From Dechloromonas sp. (GTDB taxonomy: Bacteria; Pseudomonadota; Gammaproteobacteria; Burkholderiales; Rhodocyclaceae), in contig JAEUOD010000188.1 of the NCBI GenBank assembly GCA_016791065.1, positions 1 through 34,344 of the forward strand: a stretch of DNA of 34,344 bases. Direction: 5' to 3'. The notes under the pieces were generated by a model. The model had not been told where the DNA came from, ran no database searches, and saw only the letters and a list, made by a program, of their open reading frames with translations. The translations under genes and the position numbers were made by a program. Below are positions 17,773 through 33,205 of the stretch, piece after piece (positions within the stretch are counted from its first letter, which is position 1; every line of letters starts with the position of its first letter).

Positions 17773-19893
17773 TCAGAAGCTGTAGCGCGCGCTCAGGCCG
17801 AGCAGCCAGTTGCGACCCGGCGCCGATTCGTAATAGCGGCCGTTGCTGTCGCCGACGACCACCGAACCGACGTACTGACGATCGAAGATGTTGTCGAGGC
17901 GGGCGAAGCCGCGCAGGTTGAGGGCGCCGTACTGGCGCTCGATCCCGGCCCGCAGGTTGACGATGCCGTAGCTCGGCGCCGCCTGCTGCGTGTTGCTGTC
18001 CTCGACATAGACCTTGGCGCGTGCCACACCCTCGACAGCAGCATGAAAACCGCTGGCCGGATGCCGCCAGGCGAGGTCGGCGAACAGGGTGTGCGCGGCG
18101 ACACCGGGCAGGCGTTTGCCAGCCTCGACGGTGCCCGACGAACTGGTGAAATCCTCGGAGTAACGGGCATCGAGCCCGGTGTAGGCGATCCGGCTGGTGA
18201 AGTTGCCGGCCCAGCGGCTGTCGAGCGCCGCCTCCAGGCCGCGGCGCATCGTCTGGCCGGCATTGACGTAGCTCGTGCGGCCGCCGCTGCTTGAGGCGAC
18301 GACCAACTCGTCCTCAGTGCGGATCTGGAAGAGTGCGACGTCGAGCCGGCTGTCGTTGCCGACGAAGGCCTTGAGCCCGGTTTCGAGGTGGGTGCTGGTG
18401 GCCGGCTTGAGGTCGTAGCTGAACGTGCCGTTGGCGCCGGAATAGAACAGTTCGTTCAAGGTCGGCGTTTCAAAACCGCGGGCCAGGCTGACGTAGAGGT
18501 TGGCCGCCGGGGTCAGGCGATAGAGCGCGGCCAGCATCGGCGTCGTCTTCTCATAGCTGACCTCGCCGCTGTCGTCGCCGTTGCCGGTCGCGATGTAGTT
18601 GTCGTCCACCTTGAAATTCACCTTGCTGTGGCGCAGGCCGCCGGTGAAGACCCAGCGCTCGCCCTGCCACTCGGCCTGGGCATACTGGTCGAAGCTGCTG
18701 ACGCGATCTTCCTCGTCGCGGCGCAGGCGTCCCTTGACCCCGAGATTGGTCGCGCTGGTGTAGTTCTCGTAGCCCTTGCGGTCGTCGAGCGAGCGCTCGT
18801 ACTCCAGGCCGAAGGTCGTCGTCAGCTTGCCGCCGGCGACGTCGAAGCGGCTGATCCAGCGCCCGGAAGCGCCGGAGAAGCTGCGGTCGAAATCAATTAC
18901 CCCGCCCGAATGCTTGCGCTTCGGATCTGAGGGCTTGGTCGCCGGAGTGATCAACTGCACGGAACGCGGAATCGACTGGTACTGGACGACCGAACGCTGG
19001 CCGGTATAGGCCGCCAGCTGCAGTTCATGATCGCCGAAGCGGCGCTCGTAGCTCAACCCACCCTGCTGGTGGTCGATGCTCTTGCGCGTGTTGTAGAGCA
19101 AGGCGGCCGCCTCGACGCTGCGCGGGTCTTCCTGGTACTTGCTCCAAGTCAGGCCGAGCGGGTCTTCCGCTTTCTGCGAGAAGCCGTTGGCGACGAACAT
19201 CAGGCGGCTGTCTTCGTCCGGCCGCCAGGTCAGCTTGGCCATCTGCTGATTGCGCTCGGCGCTGCTGTGGTCGCGATAGCCGTCGGTGATGAAGCGCGAG
19301 GCATCGAGCACGTAGCCGAGGGAACCGACCTCGCCCTGGGCCGAGACATCTCCCTTCCAGCTGCCGTAGCTGCCGGCGGTGAAGCCGCCTTCGACGCTCG
19401 GTCGCCCCTTGCCGTCAGCGGTGAACATCTGGATCACGCCGCCGGCGTGATTGCCGTAGACCGAGGACATCGGGCCACGCATGACCTCGATGCGTTCGGC
19501 GCGGTCGAGGTTGAAGGTGGCGGCCTGGCCCTGGCCGTCCGGCATCGAGGCCGGAATGCCGTCGGCGACCAGGCGGATGCCGCGCACGCCGAAAGCCGAG
19601 CGTGCACCGAAGCCGCGCGAGGAAATCTGCAGGTCCTGGGCGTAGTTCTGACGATTGTTGGCCGTGATGCCGGGCACCGCCGCCAGTGCCTCCGAGGCGT
19701 TGACCTTGGCCTGGTCGGCGCCAATGCGGTCGGCACCGACGACATCGACCGCCGCCGGCAGGTCGAAGCTGTTGTGCTGGACGCGACTGCCGGTGACGAC
19801 GACCGAATCGAGGGTTACCGCTGTTTGAGCCACCGCCAGGCAGGGAAAGGCCGTAGCAATCAGGAGGGAAAGGCGACGAGGATGAAGGTTCAT
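17773..19893 (-). CDS. TonB-dependent outer-membrane receptor 1
   Basis: A 706-residue TonB-dependent receptor. A signal peptide occupies residues 1-22, followed by a TonB box around DSVVVTGSR. The plug has ALAAVPGITANNR and IEVMRGPMSSVYGNHAGGVI, the usual plug signature. The C-terminal 22-strand barrel ends in LSARYSF with terminal Phe. It imports a chelated metal, cofactor or similar ligand; no ligand can be read from sequence. It lies after the TonB/receptor/kinase/regulator operon on the same strand but across a 233-base gap, so it may be regulated by that system. The ATG at 19893 has a poor Shine-Dalgarno. A lanthanide or PQQ-related ligand is suggested by context only. Confidence 0.9.
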   Translation of the reverse strand: MNLHPRRLSLLIATAFPCLAVAQTAVTLDSVVVTGSRVQHNSFDLPAAVDVVGADRIGADQAKVNASEALAAVPGITANNRQNYAQDLQISSRGFGARSAFGVRGIRLVADGIPASMPDGQGQAATFNLDRAERIEVMRGPMSSVYGNHAGGVIQMFTADGKGRPSVEGGFTAGSYGSWKGDVSAQGEVGSLGYVLDASRFITDGYRDHSSAERNQQMAKLTWRPDEDSRLMFVANGFSQKAEDPLGLTWSKYQEDPRSVEAAALLYNTRKSIDHQQGGLSYERRFGDHELQLAAYTGQRSVVQYQSIPRSVQLITPATKPSDPKRKHSGGVIDFDRSFSGASGRWISRFDVAGGKLTTTFGLEYERSLDDRKGYENYTSATNLGVKGRLRRDEEDRVSSFDQYAQAEWQGERWVFTGGLRHSKVNFKVDDNYIATGNGDDSGEVSYEKTTPMLAALYRLTPAANLYVSLARGFETPTLNELFYSGANGTFSYDLKPATSTHLETGLKAFVGNDSRLDVALFQIRTEDELVVASSSGGRTSYVNAGQTMRRGLEAALDSRWAGNFTSRIAYTGLDARYSEDFTSSSGTVEAGKRLPGVAAHTLFADLAWRHPASGFHAAVEGVARAKVYVEDSNTQQAAPSYGIVNLRAGIERQYGALNLRGFARLDNIFDRQYVGSVVVGDSNGRYYESAPGRNWLLGLSARYSF

Positions 19894-20126: not shown

Positions 20127-20774
20127 TCACCCCTCGATCAGCCCGTTGCGCAAGGCGACCAGGGTCAGTTCGGCGCCGTTCTGCACGTTCAGTTTCTGCT
20201 TGATGTGATAGAGATGCGTGCCGACCGTGCTTGGGCTCAGGCAGAAATCTCCAGCCACATCATTGACCGAGCGCCCTTCCGCAAGCTTGAGGAAGACGGC
20301 AAGTTCCTTTTCGGTCAGCGCCTCGACCGGATTGGCCGAGCCTGAAAGCTGCGCCAGGGCGACGATCTGCGCCAGTTCCGGATCGAGATAGCGGCGCCCG
20401 CCAGCGACCTGCCCGACCGCACGCAGGAACTCCTCGGGCTCGGCCCGTTTGCACAGGTAGCCGCTGGCGCCAAGGCGCAGGGCACGGACCGGGACAATGT
20501 CGTCATGGTGCGCCGAGAGCATCAGCACGCGGGCTTTCGACTCCCAGACCAGCAGGCGTTCGAGCGCCGCCAGACCACCGATCCCGGGCATCGAGACATC
20601 CATCACGACGACATCGGGATTGCTCTCGGCGTAAAGGCGGATCGCATTTTCGCCATTGCCCGCCTCGCCCACGACCTCGGCCCCCGCCCCTTCGAGCAGC
20701 AGGCGAAAGCCCAGGCGGACGACCGCGTGGTCGTCGGCCAACAGGACGCGGATGCCTTGCAGGTTCTTGTTCAT
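20127..20774 (-). CDS. NarL/LuxR-type response regulator
   Basis: A 215-residue response regulator. The receiver domain has acidic residues D14-D15, the phospho-acceptor D59 in VVVMDVSMPG, the conserved Ser in MLSAHH and Lys in LCKRA. The C-terminal LuxR-type helix-turn-helix has LTEKELAVFLKLAEGRSVNDVA and STVGTHLYHIKQKLNV. It is the partner of the histidine kinase immediately upstream, whose stop overlaps this ATG as ATGA; AGGAGG lies seven bases upstream. NarL-type regulators of this kind (ExaE/AgmR, PedR1 and PedR2) control quinoprotein alcohol dehydrogenases in pseudomonads, which fits the context. It does not contain an AAA+ domain and so cannot activate the sigma-54 promoters itself. 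Confidence 0.93.
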   Translation of the reverse strand: MNKNLQGIRVLLADDHAVVRLGFRLLLEGAGAEVVGEAGNGENAIRLYAESNPDVVVMDVSMPGIGGLAALERLLVWESKARVLMLSAHHDDIVPVRALRLGASGYLCKRAEPEEFLRAVGQVAGGRRYLDPELAQIVALAQLSGSANPVEALTEKELAVFLKLAEGRSVNDVAGDFCLSPSTVGTHLYHIKQKLNVQNGAELTLVALRNGLIEG

Positions 20775-22120
20775 GCGTATTCCTCCTGAAGATTCGGGAT
20801 GGGCAGGCGGGCAAACAGGCAAAAGCCACCGGCCGGTGTCTGCGTGAATTCGAGTTGGCCATCGAGCGCCGCGACACGTTCGGCCATGCCAGTCAGCCCG
20901 AGGCCGCAACCGGCCTGCGCCGACGGCGTACGCTGCCTGCCGCGACCGTTATCAGCCAGGCGAAGCCGCAGTTCGCCATCGGCCCGCTCGACCGCGAGTT
21001 CAACCCGGCTGGCAGCGGCATGACGTACAACATTGGTCAGCCCTTCCTGGACGATACGGATAACCGTTCGGGAAACGGCCTCATCCAGCGGCTGCGGCCC
21101 AAGCGCCAGACGGACATCGAGCTCGATCCGCTCATGCTGCAGACGCCAGCCGGCAAGCAGCTTGTCCAGCGCCCCCGCCAGGCTGCCGGCAGTCACCGGA
21201 TGCAGTCGGTGCAGGATGGCCCTGACGCCCTGCTGCATTTCCCCGGTGACGGCGACGATGCTTTGTGCCGGGCTATACACGGTCGGCTGCTCTTTCGTGC
21301 GCTGGGCAATCGCCCCGGCCAGGGCGCGCACGGCAGTGATGCCCTGGGCCAGTTCGTCGTGCAGTTCGCGGGCGATCTGGCGACGTTCGTCTTCCAGCCG
21401 GGACTGCATGCAGCGCGCCAGTTCATGCTCGGTTTCGAGGCGGACATTCTCATCCACGGCCGCTCCCAGGCGATCGGCCATACCGTTGAAGGCGCGCGAC
21501 AGGCGACCGAGTTCGGGAGTCGCGAAGACCGGCAGACGGGTATCGAAACGGCCATTGCCGGTACGCTCCAGCGCCTGCATGACCAGTTCCAGCGGACGCA
21601 GCGCGTAATCCAGGGCGCGCCGGGTAAGCATGAAAAGCAGGCCGAGCAGTGCGACGGCCCAACCGGCCATGGCAATCAACTCGTCCCAGGCATCGATCAC
21701 CGCCCGCGAGGCATCGGGCTGGAGCTGGACATGAACTTCGCCGATGGCCAGGCGACGGGACTCAAAAAATTGTGGCTGGAGCAAGTCGGCAAACCATTCC
21801 GGCACGCTACGCCCGGCCTTGTAGCTTGGCCCCGGCGAACGGTAGAGCAGGCGCCCGTCGGCGGCGATGACCCGCAGTTCGTTGGCGCGGATGCGGCCGA
21901 GCGGACGCAGGACGGCGACCAGGCGTTCCGCCGGCGCCTCGCGAAACTCCTCGGCCAATGCCTTGAGCCATTGCTCGGAAACCCGGCTCGCCGCCTCGAC
22001 TTCCTCATGGATGGCGAGCCGCGCGCCATGCAGCCAGACGGCGGCGAGGACCAGCAGCAGGCTGGCGGCAAGGCCGGTGAGGACGAGGCTGATACGGGTA
22101 TGCAGATTGAGGCTTTGCAT
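20771..22120 (-). CDS. Membrane histidine kinase (HisKA_3, NarX/MoxY-like)
   Basis: A roughly 449-residue sensor kinase. Transmembrane helix 1 is at about residues 9-31 and helix 2 at about 148-166, enclosing a periplasmic sensor of roughly 115 residues. HAMP follows. The phospho-accepting His is in RQIARELHDELAQGIT (about residue 254), of HisKA_3 type. The ATPase domain has VQEGLTNVVRHA, DNGRG and GLGLTGMAERV. The periplasmic region begins with a pattern like LapD/MoxY-type sensors found in methanol and alcohol-oxidation kinases such as PedS2. It could sense the metal or a product of alcohol oxidation. The start overlaps the receptor stop (TGATG); ATG 22120 or 22123 are both possible. Confidence 0.9.
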   Translation of the reverse strand: MQSLNLHTRISLVLTGLAASLLLVLAAVWLHGARLAIHEEVEAASRVSEQWLKALAEEFREAPAERLVAVLRPLGRIRANELRVIAADGRLLYRSPGPSYKAGRSVPEWFADLLQPQFFESRRLAIGEVHVQLQPDASRAVIDAWDELIAMAGWAVALLGLLFMLTRRALDYALRPLELVMQALERTGNGRFDTRLPVFATPELGRLSRAFNGMADRLGAAVDENVRLETEHELARCMQSRLEDERRQIARELHDELAQGITAVRALAGAIAQRTKEQPTVYSPAQSIVAVTGEMQQGVRAILHRLHPVTAGSLAGALDKLLAGWRLQHERIELDVRLALGPQPLDEAVSRTVIRIVQEGLTNVVRHAAASRVELAVERADGELRLRLADNGRGRQRTPSAQAGCGLGLTGMAERVAALDGQLEFTQTPAGGFCLFARLPIPNLQEEYA

Positions 22121-24438
22121 CATTTCCCCCACACATAACGCACGCCGACCCAGGCCGCACGCGGTGCGCCGGGAGCGACGAAGGTTTCGCGGCGCCAGTC
22201 GCCGGAGTCGGCCTGGAAATGGCCGCTGCCGTCGAACGGATTCTCGGCCAGCGCGGCGGCCGTGGCGTAGCGCTTGTCGAAGACGTTGTTCACCCGCAGG
22301 AAGGCCTGCCAGCCGGCACCCAGACTGGCTTCGGCATTGAGGTTGAGGATGGCGTAGCCGGCCGTCTTGCCCGCTCCCTCGAAGCTGCGCGTATTGCCGA
22401 AGGCATCGGTGGCCTCGCCCGACTGGTGCCGGTTGTTCTCGTTGCCCCGCGCGTACTGGCCGGAAAAGGCCTGGACGTCGCCGCCCAGGCGCAGCCAGTC
22501 GGTCGCCCGCCAGCTCAGGCCGAGCTTGAGGCTGTGCTCGGGCAGACCAGGCAGGCGGTTACCCTTCTTGACGAGAATCTCGTCGTCCTGCCCATTGGCC
22601 GTGCAGGCGGCGGCCGTGCCGCGCGAACTGTTGTTCTCGGCGAGCAGGCAGGCCTCGGACTGGAAGGTGGCATGCAGGTAGCTGTAGTTGGCGAACCACT
22701 CGAAGCGACGCTGCCGGCCGTTGATGCCCAGTTCGACGCCCTGGCGCTGGGTCTTGCCGAAGTTGGTGAAATAGCCGGCGCTGGTCGAGGTACCGACGAA
22801 GAGGATGTCGTCGCTCGACACGGTGCGATAGACCCCGGCGTTCCAGCCGATGTCGGCCCCGAGCTTGCCGCGCAGGCCGGCTTCGAAGGTGCGGGCGACG
22901 ACCTGCTTGAGATAGGGGTCGGCCGCCATCGAGTTGGGCAGCGTACAGGGATTGGCCGGGTCGGCGCAGCCCAGTTCGATCGGCGTCGGCACCCGGTTGC
23001 CCTGGCTGAAGCCGCCATAGACGTTGAGCGCCGGCGCTGCCTGCCAAGTCAGGCCGAGGGCCGGGTTGAGCTTGCGGTAGCTGTGATCGCCATCGAGGTT
23101 CGGCGCCGTGCGATCGAGTTCGTCGAAGGTCGTCACCCGGCTCATGTTGTAGCGGGCCGAGGCGGTCAGATGCAGGCTCGGTGCCAGAGCGATAGTATCG
23201 GTGACGAACAGGCTGGCCGTCCGCGTCGAACCGTGCAGACGGTTTTCCTCTTCCTCCTCGCCGAGTTCCGAAACGCCGCGCGTCGAATCGATGACGCCGA
23301 TTTGCTGGGTCTGCCGGAACTTCACCTTGGCGTAATCGAACGAGCCGCCCACGGTCAGTTGCTGCCGATCCGTCGTCAGGTTCCACTGCAAGGCGGCGCC
23401 AGCGCCCTGCTGCCGGGTCCGGGTCCGGTTGTAGGCACCGGACTCCTGGTTGGCGATGCCGTCAAAGGGGCCGTCCTCGAATTCGTCGTTGGCATCGCCG
23501 TTGAGCGTGCGCGTCGTGTTCTGGCGGTAGTAGAGGTTGCCGGAAAGCGATTGCGCCTCGCCGAGCCAATAGCGGCCGTTCAGGGCCAGTTGGGTCATGT
23601 CGTTGCGTGTCTGGTCGGGATGCGTGAACACCTGGTCGCGGCGGCTGGCGAACATCGACTCCGGCAGCAGGCCGTTGCCGGTCATCTTGGTCACGGCGCG
23701 GCTCAGGGTGAGGTCGGCCTCGCCGGCGGCGCTACGATGAGAGAGCTTGCCGAAGAACTGCTGCGCGTCGGACTTCGAGTAATCGCGCCAGCCATCCTCG
23801 GCAAAGGCATCGGCGGCGACATACCAGCCGAGCGAGCCGTTGTTGCCGCCATACTCCACCTCGAAATTGCGCCGGGCGAAGCTGCCGCCGGAGAGTTCGA
23901 CCTTGCCGCCGGGATGGCTGAAGCCGCTCTTGGTCCGGATGGCCAGCGCGCCGCCCAGGGTGTTGAGGCCGAACAGCGGATTCGAGCCGGGCATCAGCTC
24001 CATGCCGGCAATCGCCGAATGCGGCAGCAAGTCCCAGTTGACCGTGTCGCCGAAGGGTTCGTTGATGCGCACGCCGTCGAGATAGACCGACAGGCCCTGC
24101 GGCGTGCCGAGGAGCGGCGAGGCCGTAAAGCCGCGGTAATTCACATCCTGCTGGAAGGGATTGCCCTGGACTTCGTTGATATTGACGCCGGGCAGGCTGC
24201 GCGCCATGAACTCGGGCAGGTTGAGGCTTTCCTGCTCGTCGAGCTGGCGGTCGCTCACGGTCTGCACATTGGCCGGCACCTGCAGGCGCGGAATGCCGAT
24301 GCCGGCGAGCGGCGAATTGCCGATGACCTCGACCGTCTCGGTCTGGATCACCTTGTCGGCGGCAAAGGCCGGTGCGAAGGCGGCACTCAGCGCCAGGGCC
24401 AGGAGGCTGCGTTGCGGGCAGTGGGTTTGTCTCGTCAT
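22120..24438 (-). CDS. TonB-dependent outer-membrane receptor 2
   Basis: A 772-residue TonB-dependent receptor. A signal peptide ends near residue 27, and the TonB box is about TETVEVIG at 33-40. The plug includes LPGVNINEVQGNP and LMPGSNPLFGLNTLGGALAI, and the barrel ends in WVGVRYVWGK. Two predicted loop regions are strongly acidic: 315-326 (D315, D318, E319, E321, D322, D326) and 391-398 (E391, E394-E398). Acidic loops could help bind a hard metal ion or its chelate, but this is inference. It lies directly after tonB (ATGA overlap) and directly before the histidine kinase, so import and sensing are co-expressed. LutH, a lanthanide receptor of methylotrophs, is the functional analogue I would test. 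Confidence 0.9.
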   Translation of the reverse strand: MTRQTHCPQRSLLALALSAAFAPAFAADKVIQTETVEVIGNSPLAGIGIPRLQVPANVQTVSDRQLDEQESLNLPEFMARSLPGVNINEVQGNPFQQDVNYRGFTASPLLGTPQGLSVYLDGVRINEPFGDTVNWDLLPHSAIAGMELMPGSNPLFGLNTLGGALAIRTKSGFSHPGGKVELSGGSFARRNFEVEYGGNNGSLGWYVAADAFAEDGWRDYSKSDAQQFFGKLSHRSAAGEADLTLSRAVTKMTGNGLLPESMFASRRDQVFTHPDQTRNDMTQLALNGRYWLGEAQSLSGNLYYRQNTTRTLNGDANDEFEDGPFDGIANQESGAYNRTRTRQQGAGAALQWNLTTDRQQLTVGGSFDYAKVKFRQTQQIGVIDSTRGVSELGEEEEENRLHGSTRTASLFVTDTIALAPSLHLTASARYNMSRVTTFDELDRTAPNLDGDHSYRKLNPALGLTWQAAPALNVYGGFSQGNRVPTPIELGCADPANPCTLPNSMAADPYLKQVVARTFEAGLRGKLGADIGWNAGVYRTVSSDDILFVGTSTSAGYFTNFGKTQRQGVELGINGRQRRFEWFANYSYLHATFQSEACLLAENNSSRGTAAACTANGQDDEILVKKGNRLPGLPEHSLKLGLSWRATDWLRLGGDVQAFSGQYARGNENNRHQSGEATDAFGNTRSFEGAGKTAGYAILNLNAEASLGAGWQAFLRVNNVFDKRYATAAALAENPFDGSGHFQADSGDWRRETFVAPGAPRAAWVGVRYVWGK

Positions 24439-25157
24439 GTTGTTTTATTGAGTTTGTAGTGGATGGGAACGACAACCTGGATCTCGCCGCCGTCGAGCCC
24501 TTCGGGCAAGGGCGGCAAACCGGACATGGCGGCCAGCATGGCCAGGGCGTGCTGGTCGAGCACCTCGAAGCCGCTGGAACGATCGAGCGCGACGCCGAGA
24601 AGATTGCCCTTGCGCGCCACCCGCAGGCGCAGGCGGACCTCGCCTTCCCAGCCGCGCAGGGCGGCGATACGCGGGTATTCGCGCTGTCCGGCGAGCAGCC
24701 GGGTCAGTTGCTGGCGGTAGGCAGCGAGCAGGTCGGGCGCATTGGCTGCTGCCGGCTGTGGAGCAGCTACCGCCGCTGCCGGCGCCGATTCGGCAGCAGG
24801 CGCGACCACCGCAGCGGGCGCACTGCCGGCTGCGGCCTGGGCCGGCACATTGGCCGGCCCGGCAAACGCCTGCGCGGCGGGAGACGACCGGTTCTCCCGG
24901 CGCGACGTGGCTTGCCGGACCTTCTGGGGGATCGCCGCCGGTACCGGGACGACAACGGCGGGCGATCCGGATTCGATAGGCGCAAGCAGGCGGATGCTCG
25001 CCATGATGGGTGGCAGATCGAGCGGGGGACGCTGCCGCTGCCACGAATTGAACAGAAACAGGCCGCCATGCAGGGCGACGGACAACCCGAGGATGACGGC
25101 GAAGCGCCGACCGAACGGGCGCGGCACCGCATAGGCGCGCAAGGCGGCGGCGCTCAC
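24435..25157 (-). CDS. tonB: TonB energy transducer
   Basis: A 240-residue TonB-like protein. It has one N-terminal membrane anchor (FAVILGLSVALHGGLFLF, about residues 19-36), a long alanine- and proline-rich linker (60-145), and a C-terminal TonB domain with REYPRIAALRGWEGEVRLRL around residue 163 and the closing strand IQVVVPIHYKL. It couples the inner-membrane proton gradient to the receptors. No exbB or exbD is present here. Because it sits directly upstream of receptor 2 with an ATGA overlap, it is probably dedicated to this receptor. Its own start overlaps the metallohydrolase stop in the same way. Confidence 0.92.
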   Translation of the reverse strand: MSAAALRAYAVPRPFGRRFAVILGLSVALHGGLFLFNSWQRQRPPLDLPPIMASIRLLAPIESGSPAVVVPVPAAIPQKVRQATSRRENRSSPAAQAFAGPANVPAQAAAGSAPAAVVAPAAESAPAAAVAAPQPAAANAPDLLAAYRQQLTRLLAGQREYPRIAALRGWEGEVRLRLRVARKGNLLGVALDRSSGFEVLDQHALAMLAAMSGLPPLPEGLDGGEIQVVVPIHYKLNKTT

Positions 25158-26092
25158 TTCGGCCCGCCCAGCGCTTCCTGCTCGGCGGCAGGAAAGAGAT
25201 GGCCGACCGAGCGGCGGTATTCGCTGGCCGCCACCGGCAGCTCGGCGAACTCGGCCGGCAGCGGCCGGGCCAGCACTTCGTTCATGTCCAGGCCTTCGCG
25301 GGCGGCCTGGCGCATGGCCGCCTGCAGCCAGCGCAACCAGGCGCGGGTCTGGCGGATCGGCGCGGCGTCACGGGCGACGGCACCATGGCCCGGCACCAGG
25401 GCTGTGAAGCCGGCTTCGCGGGTGATCGCCTCGAGTTGATCGAGCGCCGCCAGCCAGTGGGCGATGTCGGCGTGCGGGGTGGTCGGGGCGCGGCCGTTGA
25501 AGACGAGATCGCCGGCGAAGAGCACGCCGCTCGCCTCGTCGAAGATCGCCAGGTCGGCCCCGGTATGGCCGTCGAGCCCGATCAGGCGCAGGCGACGCCC
25601 GGCGACCTCGGCCACGCCGCCGGCCAGCGTCTTGTTCGGCGCAACGACCTCGGTGCCCTTCATCCAGTCACCGGTCAGCCGGAACAGGTTCTCGGCGAAG
25701 GCATTACCCTCGGCGGCGATGCCCTGCTGCGTCGCCGGCAGCGCGGCGATCGGCAGGCCGGCGTATGCCTGGTTACCGAGAAAATGGTCGGGGTGGTGAT
25801 GAGTGTTGATGAGCAGCGCCAGCGGCCGCCCGCTGACTGCCACGATGGCCCGCCGCATCTGTTCGCCGTAGCGTAGCGCGGGCCCGCTGTCGATGACGAC
25901 GATGCCGCCGGGGGCGACGATGAAGCCGGTATTGACGATATTGCCGCCATTAGCCGGGGTGAAGTCCTCCGTTTTGCCGACGAAAGCGTAGACGCCCTCG
26001 GCGACACGCTCGGCCTGGAGGCGATAGTCATAGTCGGCGGCCACCGCCAGCACGGCAACACTGCCGAGGACGATTCCGAGCAAGGCTTTCAT
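25154..26092 (-). CDS. Quinoprotein relay system zinc metallohydrolase (MBL fold)
   Basis: A 312-residue secreted metallo-beta-lactamase-fold protein. A signal peptide ends around residue 19. The zinc motif is THHHPDH at residues 97-103, followed by later ligands in GHTGADLAIF, FAGDLVF and VPGHGAV. It matches the group called quinoprotein relay system zinc metallohydrolase 1, found next to PQQ dehydrogenases and a SoxYZ-like carrier and related to SoxH. The reaction is not established; by analogy it may process a carrier-bound intermediate in the periplasm. The frame extends upstream to 26428, but ATG 26092 begins the signal peptide and overlaps the SoxYZ-like stop as ATGA. Confidence 0.9.
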   Translation of the reverse strand: MKALLGIVLGSVAVLAVAADYDYRLQAERVAEGVYAFVGKTEDFTPANGGNIVNTGFIVAPGGIVVIDSGPALRYGEQMRRAIVAVSGRPLALLINTHHHPDHFLGNQAYAGLPIAALPATQQGIAAEGNAFAENLFRLTGDWMKGTEVVAPNKTLAGGVAEVAGRRLRLIGLDGHTGADLAIFDEASGVLFAGDLVFNGRAPTTPHADIAHWLAALDQLEAITREAGFTALVPGHGAVARDAAPIRQTRAWLRWLQAAMRQAAREGLDMNEVLARPLPAEFAELPVAASEYRRSVGHLFPAAEQEALGGPK

Positions 26093-26859
26093 GGAGCGAT
26101 CCGCGCCTTGAAGACGTTGCCGTTGTTGTCGCGGCCGCTGGCTTCGAGCGGCCCGTCGACGGCACCGCGGTTGAGCGTGAACACCGGATTCTCGCTCACC
26201 GGCTCGTAGGTCTGCAGGCGCATCAGGCGCTGGCCGCCGGCATCGCGGAACTCGATCTCTTCGAGATGAAAGGCTGGCGTGCCGGCGATCAGCCCGGTAT
26301 CCATCGGGTGCTCGATGCGCAGGCGGACGCGACCGACATTCGGGCCTTCCGTCCATTGACGGCCACTCACCATGTTGAGCCGTTGCTGCCAGTCCTTGCT
26401 CGCGGCCGTGCCGGTCGGCGCCGTGCACCCGCCACCGACGGTATTCACCCAGATCCCGCCGACATGCCAGACGCCGTCGGCCGTGCGCACCGCGGCGCGC
26501 ACCGGCGTCGATTGCTGCAGCTTGACGCGAAAGCCGAGGTAGGCCGGGGCGGCCTCCGGAAAGAAGCGCAGCACCTGGAGAATGGGATTGAAGTCGGCGA
26601 AGACGAGCACCTCGACCACCTTGCCGAGTGCCGTGGCATCGACCGTAACCGGCACCTGCATCGGGTTCTCGGCGGTCGACGGCGCCACCACCTTGACGCG
26701 CGGATCGAAGAGCACCGGCGCGCCGGCCAGAAAAGCCTTCTGCATCTCACCCCAGCGCGCCGAGGCCAGCGGGTCGCCGCTTTCGCGCAGGGCCGCCGCT
26801 TCGCCCGGTGGCATCAGCGCGGCCAGTGCAATGGCGGCTACGGTCATGTGGAACTTCAT
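26089..26859 (-). CDS. Quinoprotein dehydrogenase-associated SoxYZ-like carrier
   Basis: A 256-residue secreted protein that looks like fused SoxY and SoxZ halves. A signal peptide covers about residues 1-22. The SoxY-like half ends in TVGGGCTAP with C145, equivalent to the carrier cysteine of SoxY, but internal and not at the C-terminus. The SoxZ-like half follows (RVRLRIEHPMDTGL, then AFHLEEIEFRDAGG). This corresponds to the group known as quinoprotein dehydrogenase-associated SoxYZ-like carriers. What is carried on the Cys is unknown. It is the first gene of the six-gene operon, with a sigma-54 promoter about 40-65 bases upstream. ATG 26859 was chosen for the signal peptide, and GGAG lies upstream. 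Confidence 0.88.
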   Translation of the reverse strand: MKFHMTVAAIALAALMPPGEAAALRESGDPLASARWGEMQKAFLAGAPVLFDPRVKVVAPSTAENPMQVPVTVDATALGKVVEVLVFADFNPILQVLRFFPEAAPAYLGFRVKLQQSTPVRAAVRTADGVWHVGGIWVNTVGGGCTAPTGTAASKDWQQRLNMVSGRQWTEGPNVGRVRLRIEHPMDTGLIAGTPAFHLEEIEFRDAGGQRLMRLQTYEPVSENPVFTLNRGAVDGPLEASGRDNNGNVFKARIAP

Positions 26860-26908: not shown

Positions 26909-26924
26909 CGCAAGCGCCATGCCA
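26909..26924 (-). promoter_or_regulatory. Sigma-54 promoter of the SoxYZ/MBL/TonB/receptor/kinase operon
   Basis: The minus strand reads TGGCATGGCGCTTGCG, with GG-N10-GC spacing and only two departures from TGGCACG-N4-TTGCW. The predicted start point is about 40 bases before the SoxYZ-like ATG. Confidence 0.7.
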
Positions 26925-27011
26925 AACCCGGCGTACCGCCGAAGATGGCCGCCCCGCAAGCAAAAGCCGCCAGCGGGAATACACCCGCCATGCGCCGCAG
27001 CAGTTGTCTTG

Positions 27012-27042
27012 TGCAAATCTGGAGCAGCTGTGTTCATTTGCA
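27012..27042. promoter_or_regulatory. Candidate activator site between divergent sigma-54 promoters
   Basis: TGCAAAT at 27012-27018 and ATTTGCA at 27036-27042 form a seven-base inverted repeat with a 17-base spacer. The centre is about 130 bases from either start point, a usual distance for a sigma-54 enhancer. The identity of the binding protein is unknown. Confidence 0.35.
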
Positions 27043-27137
27043 GCAGGCAGGTACCTCACCACCGGACAGAGAACAGCATGCCGGCCACCGGCTGCCTTGC
27101 CAGTTGCCGCCAGTGGTTCCGCACGTTTATGAGGTAA

Positions 27138-27153
27138 TGGCACAGGCCTTGCA
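27138..27153 (+). promoter_or_regulatory. Sigma-54 promoter of the lanthanide-type PQQ dehydrogenase
   Basis: TGGCACAGGCCTTGCA matches TGGCACG-N4-TTGCW at every position but one. The predicted start point is near 27164, leaving a leader of about 95 bases before the dehydrogenase ATG. Confidence 0.8.
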
Positions 27154-27257: not shown

Positions 27258-29039
27258 ATGCACAGTAAGCACCTCCCCCAGCGGCGCGGCCTCGGCCTCG
27301 CGCTGGCCGTCGCCCTGGCCTTCGCCGGCAGCCCGGCCAGCGCCGAGGTCAGCGACGCCGACATCCTCAATGACGCCACCACCAAGGGCGACGTCGTCAG
27401 CTTCGGCCTCGGCACCCAGGGCCAGCGTTACAGCACCTCGACCCAGATCAACACCAAGAGCGTCAAGAACCTGGTGCCGGCCTGGTCGATGTCCTTCGGC
27501 GGCGAAAAACAACGCGGACAGGAATCACAGCCGGTCATCCATAACGGCAAGATGTTCGTCACCGCCTCCTACAGCCGCCTCTTCGCGATCGACGCCAAGA
27601 GCGGCAAGAAGCTCTGGAAATACGAGCATCGCCTACCCGACGGCATCAGGCCCTGCTGCGACGTGATCAACCGCGGCGCCGCGCTCTACGGCAACCTGGT
27701 CATCTTCGCCACGCTCGACGCCCAGCTCGTCGCCCTCAACCAGGAAACCGGCAAGGTCGCCTGGAAGGAAAAGATCGGCGACTACGCCGCCGGCTATTCC
27801 GCCACCGCCGCCCCGATCATCGCCCGCGGCAAGCTGATCACCGGCATTTCCGGCGGTGAGTTCGGTGCCGTCGGCCGCATCGATGCACGCAACCCGCTGA
27901 CCGGCAAGCTGATCTGGACCCGCCCGACGGTCGAAGGCCACATGGGCTACCGCTATGAAGAGGGCAAGGAGATCGAAAACGGCATCTCCGGCACCACCAA
28001 CGCGACCTGGGAAGGCGACCTCTGGAAGACCGGCGGCGCCGCCACCTGGAACGGCGCCACCTACGATCCGGAAACCAACCTGATCTTTGCCGGCACCGGC
28101 AACCCGGCCCCGTGGAACAGCCACCTGCGCCCGGGCGACAACCTGTTCTCGTCCTCCACCGTCGCCATCGACGCCGATACCGGCAAGATCGCCTGGCACT
28201 ACCAGAACACCCCGCACGACGGCTGGGACTTCGACGGCGTCAATGAATTCGTCTCCTTCGACTACAAGGATCCGAAGACAGGCAAGCTGCTCAAGGCCGG
28301 CGGCAAGGCCGACCGCAACGGCTTCTTCTTCGTCAATGACCGGACCAACGGCAAGCTGCTCAACGTCTTCCCCTTCGTCAAGAAGATCACCTGGGCCACC
28401 GGCTACAACATGGAAACCGGCCGTCCGAACTACATCGAGGAAGGCCGTCCGGGCGACCCGACGCAAGGTGCCGACGGCAAGAAGGGCAAGGTCGTCTTCT
28501 CGGCCCCGTCCTTCCTCGGCGGCAAGAACCAGCAGCAGATGGCCTACTCGCCGCAGACCGGTCTCTTCTACGTGCCGGCCAACGAGTGGTCGATGGACAT
28601 CTGGAACGAGCCGGTGTCGTACAAGAAGGGCGCCGCCTACCTCGGTGCCGGCTTCACGATCAAGGCCATCCACGACGACCACATCGGTGTGCTGCGCGCC
28701 GTCGATCCGGCCACCGGCAAGATCGTCTGGGAAAACAAGAACTACGCCCCGCTCTGGGGTGGCGTCCTGACCACGGCCGGCGGCCTGGTGTTCTATGGCA
28801 CCCCGGAAGGCTTCCTCAAGGGTGTTGACGCCAAGACCGGCAAGGAACTGTGGTCCTTCCAGACCGGCACCGGCATCGTTGCACCGCCGGTCAGCTGGGA
28901 ACAGGATGGCGAGCAAATGATCGCTGTCACCACCGGCTGGGGCGGCGCCGTGCCGCTCTGGGGCGGCGACGTCGCCAAGCGCGTGAACTTCCTCGAACAG
29001 GGCGGTTCCGTGTGGGTCTTCAAGCTGCACAAAGGTTGA
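27258..29039 (+). CDS. PQQ-dependent alcohol dehydrogenase, lanthanide-type signature
   Basis: A 593-residue periplasmic quinoprotein alcohol dehydrogenase. A signal peptide ends near residue 29. The vicinal disulfide over PQQ is C133-C134 in [10 protein letters not shown]. Metal ligands are E201 (SGGEFG), N282 (GTGNPAPWN) and the catalytic base D324. D326 two residues on (WDFD) is the extra Asp that marks XoxF-, ExaF- and PedH-type enzymes using lanthanides. Tryptophan-docking repeats of the eight-bladed propeller are visible throughout, for example in AYLGAGF and the C-terminal [11 protein letters not shown]. It oxidises primary alcohols to aldehydes and passes electrons to a cytochrome c. 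AGGAGA lies seven bases before the ATG. Confidence 0.93.
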
Positions 29040-29241: not shown

Positions 29242-29985
29242 ATGCACGTTCAGCAGACACTCAGGATCACGGCCGCCGTGCTGGCTGGCCTACTGCTCAC
29301 CTCCTGCGCCAGCGAAATGCGCCGCGCAGAAAACAAGGCGCTTGAACAGCAACTGGACACGCCGCAGACCGTCCAGGTCACCACACCGCCCTTCGACGAA
29401 GCCTTTGCTAACGCAGCCCTGGCCGAAGGGAGCAGCACAATCAAGGGGGTGGTTTTCCACAAGATCCGTAACGGTGGAAAGGACGCCGGTCGGGATGCCG
29501 CGCTGCTGAATTTCTCTTCCGGTACGCCGATGGCGAATGTGAAGCTTTTCCTCTACCCGGCGACCGAGCATTTCAAGGAAATCATGCGCCTGGAGAATGA
29601 GAACCGCTCGGCGCGGGCCTGGCGAAAAGTACAGTTAAAAAGCTTCGTAGGCGATCCGCGCGTCTATAAATACCGCTTGATCGCCACCTCCGACGCCAAT
29701 GGCCTGTTCGAATTCCCCAAGATGCGGCCGGGCAAATACGTGTTGCTCACAGACAACTGGAGCATCACCTCGAACGGCCAGGAAACCGTGCTCACCGGCC
29801 ATGGCTACGAAACAGCCGGCTACGTCGTCAGCCAATACGGCGCCACCCCCATTAACCGATTGGTTGTCCATACCCAGGAACAGAATTTCAAGGTCAGGAC
29901 CGACGTGTCATTCACCGACGAGGTCAATGTCCCGGCTGACAACACGGTGGTCAAGGTCGAAGCGCGCATGCGGCCGATCCGCTAG
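29242..29985 (+). CDS. Lipoprotein with a carboxypeptidase-regulatory-like beta domain
   Basis: A 247-residue predicted lipoprotein of unknown function. The lipobox LLLTSC places the lipid-carrying cysteine near residue 22. After a polar linker, residues 65-180 include TPMANVKLFLYPA and SDANGLFEFPKMRPGKYVLLTDNW, a pattern like the transthyretin-like or carboxypeptidase-regulatory fold, in which a gene product is shown and then modified by loops. The C-terminal part is beta-rich. It follows the lanthanide-type dehydrogenase but is separated by a terminator, so it has its own promoter. GGAAGGA lies about ten bases upstream of ATG 29242. A role in PQQ-dehydrogenase assembly or surface metal handling is only suggested by position. 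Confidence 0.75.
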   Translation: MHVQQTLRITAAVLAGLLLTSCASEMRRAENKALEQQLDTPQTVQVTTPPFDEAFANAALAEGSSTIKGVVFHKIRNGGKDAGRDAALLNFSSGTPMANVKLFLYPATEHFKEIMRLENENRSARAWRKVQLKSFVGDPRVYKYRLIATSDANGLFEFPKMRPGKYVLLTDNWSITSNGQETVLTGHGYETAGYVVSQYGATPINRLVVHTQEQNFKVRTDVSFTDEVNVPADNTVVKVEARMRPIR

Positions 29986-30157: not shown

Positions 30158-30616
30158 TCACCTGCCCGCTCCCGCCCGGAACTCGACGAAGGTCTGGATG
30201 GCCCAGGCCAGTTCCTGCTTGAGCACGCCCTGCCAGGGCGGCATGTGGGTGACGCCGACGATGATCTTGCCGTTGCGCACCGTCTTGGCGAAATAGGCGT
30301 CGTTGTCGCGCAGGCAGGCGGCCTTCAGTTCGGCATCGCCGATCCGTCTGCAGAAGCGGTTGAGCTGGCGGAGATCGGGGGCCGGGGCGGCATTGGTACT
30401 GGCATCGGCGCCGTGGCAGCGGGCGCAGGCCTGGTTGTAGGCCTGCTGGCCGAGGGCAACGGCCTCGGGATTGCCGCGATAGGGGTTTTCGCTGCGCCAG
30501 GTTTCGCCGAGCGGCGGCAGGCTGTCGGCCGACACGCTGGGGGCGACGGCGACTTCGTTGGCCAGCGCCGAAGCGGCCAGCAGTGAAGCGATCAGGGTGA
30601 TGAGCAGTTTGTTCAT
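30158..30616 (-). CDS. pedF: Cytochrome c550, PedF-like
   Basis: A 152-residue periplasmic cytochrome c. A signal peptide covers residues 1-19. The heme motif is C64-A-R-C67-H68, followed by an APDLRQL stretch and the axial-Met region VTHMPPWQG. The segment ENPYRGNPEAVALGQQAYNQ is typical of the cytochrome c550 PedF group that takes electrons from PQQ alcohol dehydrogenases. It sits downstream of the pentapeptide protein and near the Ca-type dehydrogenase on the same strand, so it is the likely electron acceptor of one or both enzymes. Two extra cysteines (C89 and C100 region) could form a disulfide. The Shine-Dalgarno is weak and translation may be coupled to the upstream stop five bases away. 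Confidence 0.87.
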   Translation of the reverse strand: MNKLLITLIASLLAASALANEVAVAPSVSADSLPPLGETWRSENPYRGNPEAVALGQQAYNQACARCHGADASTNAAPAPDLRQLNRFCRRIGDAELKAACLRDNDAYFAKTVRNGKIIVGVTHMPPWQGVLKQELAWAIQTFVEFRAGAGR

Positions 30617-31333: not shown

Positions 31334-33205
31334 TCAGTTCTTCAACGACTTCGGCAGCTTGAACACCCACATCGAGCCGCCCTGCGTCACCTGCTTGGTC
31401 AGGTCGGCCATGTCGCCGCCCCACAGCGGCACGGCACCGCCATAACCGGACTGGATGCCAACGAATTGCTCGCCATCCATTTCCCAGGTGATCGGCACGG
31501 AGACCACGCCGGAACCGGTCTGGAACTTCCACAGTTCCTTGCCGCTCCTGGCGTCGAAGGCTTTGACGTAGCCGTCCGAGGTGCCGGTGAACAACAAACC
31601 GCCGGCGGTGGTCATGGTGCCGGCCCAGAGTGGGAATTTCTCCTTGTGTTCCCAGACGATCTTGCCCGTCTTCGGGTCCATGGCGCGTAGCGTGCCGACG
31701 TGGTCGTCGAACAGGCGCTTGATACGGAAGCCCTGTCCCAAGTAGGCGGAGCCGGCCTTGTAGGTCAGCTTCTCGGTCCAGTAGTCCATCGCCCAGTGAT
31801 TGGCCGGAATGTAGAACAGCCCGGTCTGCTGGCTGTAGCTCATCGGCATCCAGTTGGTGCCGCCCAGGAAAGGCGGCGAGACGAAAACCGATTCACCCTT
31901 CTCGGCGCCTTCTTTGGGCAGCGGCGGGCGCTGGCCGTCGACTTCGATCGGCTTGCCAGTCTTCACATCGAAGCCCTTGGCCCAGGTGATGCCCTCGACG
32001 AAGGGCCAGGCCCCGATCAGCGAAGTCGGCTTGTTCGGGTAGCCGGCACCGTCGGACAGCTTCTCGCGGTCGGTGACGAAAAAGAAACCATTGCGGTCGG
32101 CGTGGGCCGACGCCTTGACCTGCCTGCCACTCTTCGGATCCTTGTACTCGAAGAGCACCACCGAGTTGTTGCCGGAAAAGTCCCAGGCGTCGTTCGGCGT
32201 GTGCTGGTAGAAACCCTTGAGTTCGCCGGTGCTGGCATCGACATAGGCCTGCCCCGAGGTAAACAGGCTGTCCCAGTTGCGCGGATCGTCGCCCTCCTTG
32301 GTCCGATGCCAGGTGTTCCACGGCGCCGGATTGCCGTTGCCGATCACCACCATGTTCCTGTCCACATCGTAGCTCGCTGTCTGCCACGGGGCGCCGCCAC
32401 CGTGGTGCCAGGCTTCGACCATCTTGCCCTCCTTGTCGCGCGGCCAGGACGGCGCTTCCTTGTCGCCGGTCGGTGTGCTTTCCTTGCCGTTCAGGCGGCC
32501 CATGTGGCCTTCGACCATCGGGCGAGCCCAGACTTCCTCGCCGGTATCCGGATCGCGGGCGAACAGGTAGCCGACGACGCCGAATTCGTCGCCCGACGAA
32601 CCATGCACGAGCAGCACCTTGCCGCTCTTCTGGTCCTTCACGACAAAGGGAGCGCCGGTCATCGTGTAGCCGATCTTGTGGTCGCCGAATTTCTTGCGCC
32701 AAACGACCTTGCCCGTGTCCTTGTTGAGCGCAACGATGGTTGCGTCGAGCGTTCCGAAATAGATCTTGTCGCCGTAGATCGCCGCACCGCGGTTGATCAC
32801 GTCGCAGCAAGGGCGGATGTCTTCGGGCAGGCGCGCCTCGTATTCCCACAGGCGCTTGCCGGTACGGGCGTCAATGGCGTAGATGCGCGAGTACGAGGCG
32901 GTAACGTAGATCACGCCATCATGCACGAGCGCCTGCGCTTCCTGGCCGCGCTGCTTTTCGCCGCCGAAGGAGAAGCTCCAGGCTGGGACGAGGTGCTCGA
33001 CATTCTTGGTGTTGATCTTGGTCAGCGGGCTGTAGCGCTGCGCCTTGAGGCCCAGACCGTAGGACAGTACGTCCTGCGTCGTTTTGTCGTCGTTGAGGAT
33101 GTCTTCCCAACTGACGGTCTTGCTGGCCATGGCAGGGCTGCAGCAGGCGGCCGCGACCAATGCGGCGATCAGGGTCTGACGGGGAAGTACGCAAATCGGG
33201 TTCAT
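31334..33205 (-). CDS. PQQ-dependent alcohol dehydrogenase, calcium-type (ExaA/PedE-like)
   Basis: A 623-residue periplasmic quinoprotein alcohol dehydrogenase related to ExaA and PedE. A signal peptide ends near residue 27. It has the C133-C134 disulfide, E207 (SSGDEFG) and N292 (GNGNPAPWN) as metal ligands, and the catalytic base D342. Two residues after it is S344 (WDFS), where lanthanide enzymes have Asp, so Ca is the expected metal. It is longer than the plus-strand enzyme, with an insert around residues 238-262. The frame opens upstream at 33382, but ATG 33205 begins the signal peptide. It is divergent from a histidine kinase gene, as exaA-type genes often are from their regulators. Confidence 0.93.
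   Translation of the reverse strand: MNPICVLPRQTLIAALVAAACCSPAMASKTVSWEDILNDDKTTQDVLSYGLGLKAQRYSPLTKINTKNVEHLVPAWSFSFGGEKQRGQEAQALVHDGVIYVTASYSRIYAIDARTGKRLWEYEARLPEDIRPCCDVINRGAAIYGDKIYFGTLDATIVALNKDTGKVVWRKKFGDHKIGYTMTGAPFVVKDQKSGKVLLVHGSSGDEFGVVGYLFARDPDTGEEVWARPMVEGHMGRLNGKESTPTGDKEAPSWPRDKEGKMVEAWHHGGGAPWQTASYDVDRNMVVIGNGNPAPWNTWHRTKEGDDPRNWDSLFTSGQAYVDASTGELKGFYQHTPNDAWDFSGNNSVVLFEYKDPKSGRQVKASAHADRNGFFFVTDREKLSDGAGYPNKPTSLIGAWPFVEGITWAKGFDVKTGKPIEVDGQRPPLPKEGAEKGESVFVSPPFLGGTNWMPMSYSQQTGLFYIPANHWAMDYWTEKLTYKAGSAYLGQGFRIKRLFDDHVGTLRAMDPKTGKIVWEHKEKFPLWAGTMTTAGGLLFTGTSDGYVKAFDARSGKELWKFQTGSGVVSVPITWEMDGEQFVGIQSGYGGAVPLWGGDMADLTKQVTQGGSMWVFKLPKSLKN

What the first reader, a model, noticed from the sequence alone, without database searches (positions are those of the whole stretch)
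22120..26859. Six-gene overlapping operon joins SoxYZ-like carrier, metallohydrolase, TonB, receptor, kinase and regulator
Consecutive genes from 26859 to 20127 are joined by ATGA overlaps at four of five junctions, with a one-base TGATG overlap between the receptor and the kinase. This joins quinoprotein-associated carrier genes to a dedicated TonB, a TonB-dependent receptor and a complete two-component system. PQQ-locus carriers and MBL proteins are known neighbours of quinoprotein dehydrogenases, but I do not know a described case in which they share an operon with metal-type uptake and its sensor. It may be a self-contained unit for sensing and importing the metal or chelate needed by the dehydrogenase across the divergent promoter.
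Basis: partly seen in the sequence, partly recalled or inferred. Interest (0 to 1): 0.78.

Follow-up and report, generated by a model that had tools for sequence, protein, structure and literature searches.

The report
Lanthanide-uptake operon beside alcohol dehydrogenase
A soil and water bacterium carries a tightly packed set of genes that looks built to pull rare-earth metal (and, next door, the cofactor PQQ) through its outer membrane for a rare-earth-dependent alcohol-oxidising enzyme, which matters because how bacteria that do not live on methanol get rare earths across that membrane is unsolved.

Summary
The six-gene run is real: all five junctions overlap, and by my count the whole order recurs in 26 of 37 further genomes of the genus (Dechloromonas/Azonexus) that I fetched. 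The divergent enzyme is a PedH-type PQQ alcohol dehydrogenase with the lanthanide motif WDFD; a calcium-type one (WDFS) lies 2.3 kb beyond. The receptor is homologous, over nearly its full length, to the TonB receptor standing between the lut ABC genes and lanM (LutH by position), and is that protein's best match in the window's genome. Homologues elsewhere often sit beside lanthanide-type dehydrogenases or PedA1A2BC-type ABC genes, and a few beside lanmodulin; others sit in copper, heavy-metal or unrelated settings. Of 17 PedH genomes without a full pqqC, 16 have PqqU. Best reading: an outer-membrane lanthanide (or lanthanide-chelate) uptake and signalling operon for PedH, with PQQ scavenging nearby. 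Metal identity and what the kinase senses are inferred, not shown. New variant of a known kind.

The parts
27258..29039 (+). PedH-type PQQ alcohol dehydrogenase, lanthanide motif WDFDG, adjacent-Cys (CC) pair
   Evidence: TIGR03075 769 bits; best PDB matches 6zcv/6zcw, E 4e-256; motif read
27138..27152 (+). sigma-54 (-24/-12) promoter TGGCAC-N5-TTGC facing PedH
   Evidence: one of only 2 exact matches of the pattern in the window, 0.18 expected; conserved in 35 of 35 regions
27008..27048 (.). conserved tandem element between the two promoters; probable activator site (inference)
   Evidence: alignment of 35 intergenic regions; window matches at 27018 and 27035
26910..26924 (-). sigma-54 promoter TGGCAT-N5-TTGC facing the SoxYZ operon
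   Evidence: such a site faces SoxYZ in 41 of 41 loci
26089..26859 (-). quinoprotein-associated SoxYZ-like carrier
   Evidence: TIGR04557 213 bits
25154..26092 (-). quinoprotein relay system zinc metallohydrolase 1 (SoxH-like)
   Evidence: TIGR04558 420 bits; start
24435..25157 (-). TonB, GTG start; dedicated by position (inference)
   Evidence: TIGR01352/PF03544
22120..24438 (-). TonB-dependent receptor related to LutH (called TBDR1 in the report)
   Evidence: 33% identity over residues 50-771 to LutH by position, 383-387 bits; best LutH match in own genome; AF2 model pLDDT 83, pTM 0.84
20771..22123 (-). sensor histidine kinase, two predicted TM helices, about 110-residue periplasmic domain without a Pfam match
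   Evidence: AF2 model pLDDT 79, pTM 0.45
20127..20774 (-). LuxR/NarL-type response regulator
   Evidence: Response_reg + GerE
17773..19893 (-). PqqU-type PQQ importer, 233 nt behind the regulator; linked, not shown to be cotranscribed
   Evidence: NF041535 685 bits (cut-off 1200 not reached); phmmer to 6v81/9c4o E 1e-165/3e-164; F99, K274, R304, R365, R536
30158..30616 (-). cytochrome c-550 PedF-like
   Evidence: TIGR04494 112.6 bits, cut-off 122 not reached
31334..33205 (-). second PQQ alcohol dehydrogenase, calcium-type motif WDFSG (PedE/ExaA-like)
   Evidence: TIGR03075 732 bits; motif read

Best explanation
It is the outer-membrane lanthanide arm of a PedH system. Shown by sequence: a lanthanide-type PQQ alcohol dehydrogenase and a six-gene operon face away from one gap that carries a sigma-54 promoter motif for each. 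Inferred from homology and linkage: TonB energises the LutH-related receptor, which brings lanthanide ions or a lanthanide chelate into the periplasm; PqqU nearby brings PQQ, also where the genome lacks pqqC; SoxYZ and the metallohydrolase mature or protect the enzyme, as proposed for P. putida PP_2677/PP_2678. Least certain: the kinase reads lanthanide, or holo-enzyme, status in the periplasm, and the LuxR-type regulator shifts the balance between PedH and the calcium enzyme, as PedS2/PedR2 does. No PedA1-type binding protein reached its cut-off in 60 genus genomes, so metal uptake may stop at the periplasm.
For: Lanthanide motif WDFD and closest PDB relatives 6zcv/6zcw (6ZCW is named PedH in a passage of PMC11996626). 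Receptor homologous to LutH by position in two whole lut clusters (L255, L257); it is LutH's best match in the own genome, 197.5 + 169.8 bits in two pieces against 24.8 for PqqU; in the reverse direction LutH by position is best in G702 and the lanM-linked receptor best in G619. A homologue stands next to a response regulator and a lanmodulin over its curated cut-off in Methylobacterium nodulans. PedH and the receptor go together: 37 both, 3 PedH only, 4 receptor only, 16 neither, of 60 genomes (Fisher 2e-8, not corrected for descent); three of the four 'receptor only' genomes are 74-86% complete. G008 (listed 100% complete) has no PedH, keeps the calcium enzyme, SoxYZ, metallohydrolase and PqqU, and shows no TonB, receptor, kinase or regulator at the locus. 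Of 80 named loci with a homologue, 27 have a lanthanide-type dehydrogenase and 22 a PedA1- or PedA2-like gene within reach. A sigma-54 site faces PedH in 35 of 35 loci and SoxYZ in 41 of 41, but TonB in 0 of 37, receptor 0 of 32, kinase 0 of 37, regulator 0 of 38.
Against: No binding, uptake or expression data. Some homologues have no PQQ setting: Ideonella dechloratans beside MbnP/MbnM copper genes, Azoarcus Aa7 and Aromatoleum evansii beside what I read by eye as heavy-metal efflux genes, Caballeronia and Ca. Methylocalor plasmids, Methylophilaceae without a dehydrogenase within 10 kb. 36 of 80 loci had no dehydrogenase, ABC, Sox, metallohydrolase or PqqU match in reach, some on short contigs. 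14 of 17 lanM loci held no match to the receptor in the stretch fetched. G006 (listed 100% complete) has PedH without SoxYZ carrier over cut-off or receptor; G079 has PedH with an internally deleted receptor. In G577 a second homologue scores slightly above LutH by position (204.8 against 197.2 bits). The closest solved relative of the receptor is PqqU by sequence profile and, by a small margin over other receptors, by fold. The kinase's invariant periplasmic residues include six basic ones, which does not especially suit a cation.
Confidence: 0.62

Rival explanations
1. The receptor imports PQQ itself or a PQQ-metal complex, as a second PqqU-like transporter.
For: Closest solved structure is PqqU by profile (E 4e-36) and by fold (rank 1, small margin). 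PMC12124388 (section 10 read) models co-binding of metal by PqqU variants with Glu at 274.
Against: A PqqU-type gene with the key residues is encoded next door. In the profile alignment the receptor has L, S and T at the published signature positions 99, 304 and 365 (read by me; loop alignment uncertain). The receptor is also kept in genomes with pqqC.
Confidence: 0.1
2. The receptor imports another metal or chelate (copper, iron for the c-type cytochromes, calcium), and the lanthanide link is only shared regulation.
For: Copper setting in Ideonella and apparent heavy-metal efflux setting in Azoarcus and Aromatoleum evansii, at 50-57% identity.
Against: Absent together with PedH but not with the calcium enzyme in G008; lanM and PedABC linkage in distant lineages.
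Confidence: 0.18
3. The two-component system senses alcohol, aldehyde, PQQ or redox state, not metal; the operon is an alcohol-response operon with an uptake passenger.
For: Periplasmic domain without a Pfam match, with invariant R47, R77, R79, K102, R105, R140. Sigma-54 promoters suggest a further activator.
Against: By analogy PedS2/PedR2 and MxaY answer lanthanide (PMC6115532, passages); the kinase-regulator pair is absent from the locus where PedH is absent (G008).
Confidence: 0.35
4. Mere neighbourhood: the overlaps and order are inherited by descent in one genus and say nothing about function.
For: Most complete cases are one genus; near relatives share descent.
Against: The associations recur, in the same or another order, in Denitromonas, Sulfuritalea, Stutzerimonas, Variovorax, Burkholderia and lut clusters.
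Confidence: 0.08

Closest known systems
lut cluster of Methylorubrum extorquens AM1 (LutA-LutI, LanM)
   Same: TonB-dependent receptor of the same family, in the service of a lanthanide-dependent PQQ dehydrogenase.
   Different: Here no PedA1/LutA-type binding protein over cut-off (TIGR03863 in 0 of 60 genus genomes, best 26.9 bits) and no LanM match in the own genome; instead an own TonB, SoxYZ and metallohydrolase, a two-component system, and PqqU nearby.
ped cluster of Pseudomonas putida KT2440 (PedE, PedH, PP_2677, PP_2678, PedS2/PedR2, PedA1A2BC)
   Same: PedH/PedE pair, SoxYZ-like and SoxH-like genes, c550, a kinase with LuxR-type regulator.
   Different: P. putida has the ABC system but, by PMC12997753 (passage), no LutH homologue and an unresolved outer-membrane step; here the outer-membrane step is present and the ABC binding protein was not found.
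PqqU (YncD), high-affinity PQQ importer
   Same: The gene behind the operon keeps the PQQ-contact positions tested in E. coli (F for Y at 99; K274, R304, R365, R536).
   Different: NCBIfam's equivalog cut-off is not reached (685 of 1200 bits).
LanA, the lanthanide receptor of Methylotuvimicrobium buryatense
   Same: TonB-dependent receptor needed for the lanthanide switch (PMC12482762, passages).
   Different: No LanA sequence was in hand, so no comparison was made.

Membership tests
LutH-type lanthanide receptor | full-length homology to the TonB receptor between the lut ABC genes and lanM | tested here: met
   residues 50-771, 33%, 383-387 bits; shared paired-Cys stretch of the type CxxPxxPCxLPN, not seen in PqqU
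LutH-type lanthanide receptor | best match in both directions | tested here: inconclusive
   own genome: yes; LanM genomes: lanM-linked receptor best in G702 and G619, second in G577; about 18 and 21 kb from lanM in G546 and G764; elsewhere in G585, G600 and G471
LutH-type lanthanide receptor | lanthanide uptake | not testable with these tools
   needs uptake or growth assays
lut cluster as a system | ABC transporter with LutA-like binding protein | tested here: not met
   TIGR03863 over cut-off in 0 of 60 genus genomes, own included; four weak matches, best 26.9 bits; so not filed as a lut cluster
lut cluster as a system | lanmodulin | tested here: not met
   no match in G000 at E 1e-12; genome 82% complete
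Lanthanide-type PQQ alcohol dehydrogenase (PedH) | second Asp two positions after the catalytic Asp | tested here: met
   WDFDGVNE aligned with 6zcv and 6zcw
PqqU (gene 17773-19893) | aromatic residue at 99, R304, R365 (PMC12124388, section 10) | tested here: met
   F, R, R in the window and in 25 of 25 sequences aligned, window included
PqqU (gene 17773-19893) | NCBIfam NF041535 equivalog cut-off | tested here: not met
   685 of 1200 bits; called PqqU-type only
PqqU (for the operon receptor 22120-24438) | aromatic residue at 99, R304, R365 | tested here: not met
   L, S, T in the profile alignment, read by me
PedS2/PedR2 switch | orthology of kinase and regulator | not tested
   no PedS2/PedR2 sequence in hand
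sigma-54 promoter | TGGCAY-N5-TTGC (consensus recalled) | tested here: met
LapD/MoxY periplasmic sensor (MxaY type) | LapD/MoxY N-terminal domain in the kinase | tested here: inconclusive
   no such domain listed for the four operon-type kinases scanned at E up to 5; fold comparison covered mainly residues 238-445

The most novel reading that the evidence does not exclude
A cofactor-scavenging island: a bacterium that makes no PQQ imports both halves of its enzyme's PQQ-lanthanide cofactor through two related outer-membrane receptors (the LutH-type one and PqqU) powered by one dedicated TonB, loads them wholly in the periplasm without any inner-membrane lanthanide importer, and uses a new kind of periplasmic sensor kinase to report cofactor supply.
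Probability: 0.3. Interest if true: 0.78.

Novelty: new variant of a known kind. Interest (0 to 1): 0.6.

Why it matters
The outer-membrane step of lanthanide supply to PedH in P. putida is described as unresolved (PMC12997753, passage). This operon names a testable receptor, its TonB, promoters and signalling genes in named isolates (Dechloromonas denitrificans, D. hortensis), and puts lanthanide and PQQ acquisition side by side. It also extends the LutH-related family to many bacteria outside the methylotrophs and offers markers for rare-earth use in genomes from wastewater and groundwater.

Tried and rejected
Generic siderophore receptor: not kept as the main reading because the receptor gave no PDB match by plain phmmer at E 0.001 but matches LutH by position over residues 50-771. 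Lanthanide-binding EF-hand-like loop: a conserved NGDxND stretch (residues 313-318) ends a barrel strand in the model, but it also occurs in homologues without PQQ setting and reads VDGND in LutH, so I claim nothing from it. Sensor-domain fold: the structural comparison covered mainly the catalytic half of the kinase; nothing is said about the sensor's fold. An enhancer-binding activator was not seen in the window by a GAFTGA-type motif search; such proteins were seen in loci of other organisms. The precedent of a LuxR-type regulator acting with sigma-54 at exaA of Azospirillum brasilense comes from a passage of PMC6115532, so the regulator here may still act at these promoters. ABC counts are generous: the binding protein itself is in 16 of 80 loci (my count; one of them supplied the query), and some beta-propeller matches are only 28-32% identical. 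The label XoxJ-like is mine. Of 25 plasmid records with a homologue I looked at the annotation of seven: three had a lanthanide or PQQ setting, one copper, three none (in one of these, Methylobacterium fujisawaense, the match is split by an IS66 gene). The second plasmid with a LanM-like stretch, M. extorquens CM4, shows no receptor near it. The SoxYZ-like carrier was found over cut-off in 40 of 369 genomes of the class, whose neighbourhoods I did not examine. Some tree rows from the genus were outside my context table and are drawn as 'other'. The lut gene order rests on passages of PMC7391723; calling the unnamed lut genomes Methylobacteriaceae and six other lanM loci Bradyrhizobium-like is my guess.
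Full report
What is there. The window is a contig of an 82%-complete genome of 3.17 Mb. Its relatives, read by name in a scan of genome contigs, are Dechloromonas and Azonexus. On the minus strand six genes follow one another: a SoxYZ-like carrier, a metallohydrolase, a TonB, a TonB-dependent receptor (TBDR1), a histidine kinase and a LuxR/NarL-type response regulator. All five junctions overlap: ATGA, GTGA, ATGA, ATGATG, ATGA. Upstream and divergent lies a PQQ alcohol dehydrogenase whose closest solved relatives are 6zcv and 6zcw (6ZCW is named PedH in a passage of PMC11996626) and which carries WDFDG, the pattern of lanthanide-dependent enzymes. Beyond it, 2.3 kb on, a second PQQ dehydrogenase carries WDFSG, the calcium pattern, with a PedF-like cytochrome between. 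These residues are the same in 25 of 25 sequences aligned, window included. PMC12124388 (sections 9 to 11 read) tested these positions in E. coli and uses 99, 304 and 365 as signature.

Conservation. I fetched loci from 37 other genomes of the genus. By my count keep the whole order of six; the 11 others are listed under the observation check. The 4-nt overlaps recur: SoxYZ/MBL 28 of 34, TonB/TBDR1 28 of 30, kinase/regulator 32 of 34; MBL/TonB overlaps in 21 of 31; TBDR1/kinase lies within 50 nt in 26 of 34; PqqU lies 121 to 10,229 nt behind the regulator in the 20 loci measured and never overlaps. So PqqU is a neighbour, not shown to be a member of the transcript.

Promoters. The gap between PedH and SoxYZ holds one exact sigma-54 site for each side; these are the only two matches of TGGCAY-N5-TTGC in 34 kb, where 0.18 are expected. 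All 35 gaps examined have both, against 0.07% of base-shuffled gaps per strand (at least two rows are second copies). Facing other genes within 400 nt there were none: TonB 0 of 37, TBDR1 0 of 32, kinase 0 of 37, regulator 0 of 38, PqqU 0 of 24, PedE-like 0 of 14, c550 0 of 19. Between the two promoters is one conserved tandem element. This argues for transcription of the operon from SoxYZ on and for joint control with PedH by a sigma-54 activator. Sigma-54 activators normally have an AAA+ domain (established knowledge); the regulator here has none, and a motif search found no such gene in the window. PMC6115532 (passages) mentions an Azospirillum exaA gene that depends on sigma-54 and a LuxR-type regulator, so the operon's own regulator is not excluded.

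What the receptor is. Plain phmmer gave no solved relative; a family profile finds PqqU first (E 4e-36), and so does the predicted fold, by a small margin (pLDDT 83, pTM 0.84; TM-score 0.71 for PqqU, 0.70 for FecA). But at the PqqU signature positions the profile has L, S and T, as I read the alignment. The better relative is LutH. Among 398 proteobacterial genomes, 14 have lanmodulin over the curated cut-off. Of the 17 lanM loci fetched, two (L255, L257) show the order binding protein, beta-propeller, ATPase, permease, TonB receptor, lanM, as described for M. extorquens AM1 in PMC7391723 (passages). TBDR1 matches that receptor over residues 50-771 at 33% identity and 383-387 bits; a third lanM-linked receptor (L269) matches at 31% and 334 bits; the other 14 loci hold no match in the stretch fetched. 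In the own genome LutH's best match is TBDR1, far ahead of PqqU. In eight LanM genomes, TBDR1's best match is the lanM-linked receptor in G702 and G619, and that receptor is second best in G577; in G546 and G764 the match lies about 18 and 21 kb from lanM, in G585, G600 and G471 elsewhere. In a tree of 104 sequences the four lanM-linked receptors form one group inside the family (SH-aLRT 100; long branches, quick method). In M. nodulans a homologue is followed by a response regulator and a lanmodulin over its cut-off.

Setting of the family elsewhere. In 80 named loci, 32 have a PQQ alcohol dehydrogenase in reach, 27 of the lanthanide type; 22 have a PedA1- or PedA2-like gene; 47 have a kinase or regulator within 2.5 kb; 44 have at least one dehydrogenase, ABC, Sox, metallohydrolase or PqqU match. 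Variovorax, Rhizobacter OV335 and Piscinibacter carry a lanthanide-type dehydrogenase, a XoxJ-like protein, the ABC genes and the receptor together, Rubrivivax the same with binding protein and propeller only; Stutzerimonas carries pedA1A2BC-like genes, a two-component system and the receptor. Burkholderia multivorans has a receptor divergent to a WDYDG enzyme next to pqqABCDE, Variovorax boronicumulans a WDFDG enzyme with the receptor and ABC genes. Against: copper genes in Ideonella, apparent heavy-metal efflux genes in Azoarcus Aa7 and Aromatoleum evansii, nothing related on Caballeronia and Ca. Methylocalor plasmids or, within 10 kb, in Methylophilaceae.

Gain and loss in the genus. In 60 genomes, PedH and TBDR1 occur together in 37, PedH alone in 3, TBDR1 alone in 4, neither in 16 (Fisher 2e-8, descent not corrected). 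Of the four, G021, G060 and G082 are 74-86% complete; G078 is 93%. G008 has only the calcium enzyme and keeps SoxYZ, metallohydrolase and PqqU but not TonB, TBDR1, kinase or regulator at the locus: absence goes with the lanthanide enzyme. G079 has an internally deleted TBDR1, G011 lacks kinase and regulator in the operon, G029 and G034 lack TBDR1 there but have a 47-48% homologue beside the calcium enzyme, G006 has PedH without the carrier over cut-off or the receptor. pqqC is over the cut-off in 24 of 60 and was not found in the own genome. Of 17 PedH genomes without a full pqqC, 16 have PqqU; the exception, G061, is a fragmented genome with a pqqC piece. Of 23 with pqqC, 20 have PqqU, so PqqU does not mark auxotrophs alone.

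The sensor. The kinase has two predicted membrane helices around about 110 periplasmic residues without a Pfam match. Nineteen sequences share, in that stretch, invariant R47, R77, R79, K102, R105, R140 and E40, E41, D137, D144. Whether it binds a lanthanide, an anionic ligand such as PQQ, or the enzyme cannot be told. No PedA1-type protein reaches the cut-off in 60 genus genomes, so a periplasmic reading is simplest. Passages on P. putida disagree on this point: PMC12997753 says lanthanide must reach the cytoplasm for PedS2/PedR2, PMC7391723 says ABC mutants still express pedH, so that periplasmic lanthanide suffices.

How it most likely works, and what is known. The steps are given under Best explanation. 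The pieces are known: lut receptors, the ped cluster with SoxYZ- and SoxH-like genes and PedS2/PedR2, and PqqU (PMC12997753 passages and section 15; PMC12124388 sections 9-11). PMC12997753 says P. putida lacks a LutH homologue and that its outer-membrane step is unresolved. My searches (in an open-licence library only; listings, abstracts and the passages cited) showed no paper on this combination, and none with the words lanthanide, Dechloromonas and alcohol dehydrogenase together. I therefore call it a new variant of a known kind: lanthanide receptor, own TonB, two-component system and quinoprotein maturation genes in one sigma-54 operon facing PedH, with PQQ uptake nearby.

Noticed in passing
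window 31334-33205 and 27258-29039: The contig carries both a calcium-type (WDFS) and a lanthanide-type (WDFD) PQQ alcohol dehydrogenase, as in P. putida.
   Followed up: yes
L167, L168, L174, L179 and other Methylophilaceae loci, about 12.3-14.1 kb: LutH-family receptors of Methylophilaceae are followed by an NtrC-like (sigma-54 activator) response regulator, and no PQQ dehydrogenase was matched within 10 kb.
   Followed up: partly
L100 6119-6463: Internally deleted receptor gene in G079 while TonB, kinase and regulator are kept.
   Followed up: no
L117 from 11131 on: In G082 a reading frame of 558 residues that looks by eye like a transposase occupies the place where PedH is expected.
   Followed up: no
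L056 11975-16517 and L057 4005-8531: A second receptor type with its own kinase and regulator next to the calcium-type dehydrogenase; a two-component pair of this second kind also sits near PedE-like genes in L106 (kinase only in reach), L118, L120 and L121.
   Followed up: partly
G068:C1:1854798-1858160, G077:C15:44246-47589, G029:C15:126839-130176: In some genomes PqqU lies next to pqqC instead of directly behind the operon.
   Followed up: partly
window 29242-29985: Protein behind PedH with a lipoprotein-like start and no NCBIfam or Pfam match at E 0.001; one relative seen beside PedH in L045/L129 (65%).
   Followed up: no
L238: LutH-family receptor with a kinase-regulator pair in an MbnP/MbnM copper setting in Ideonella dechloratans.
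   Followed up: no
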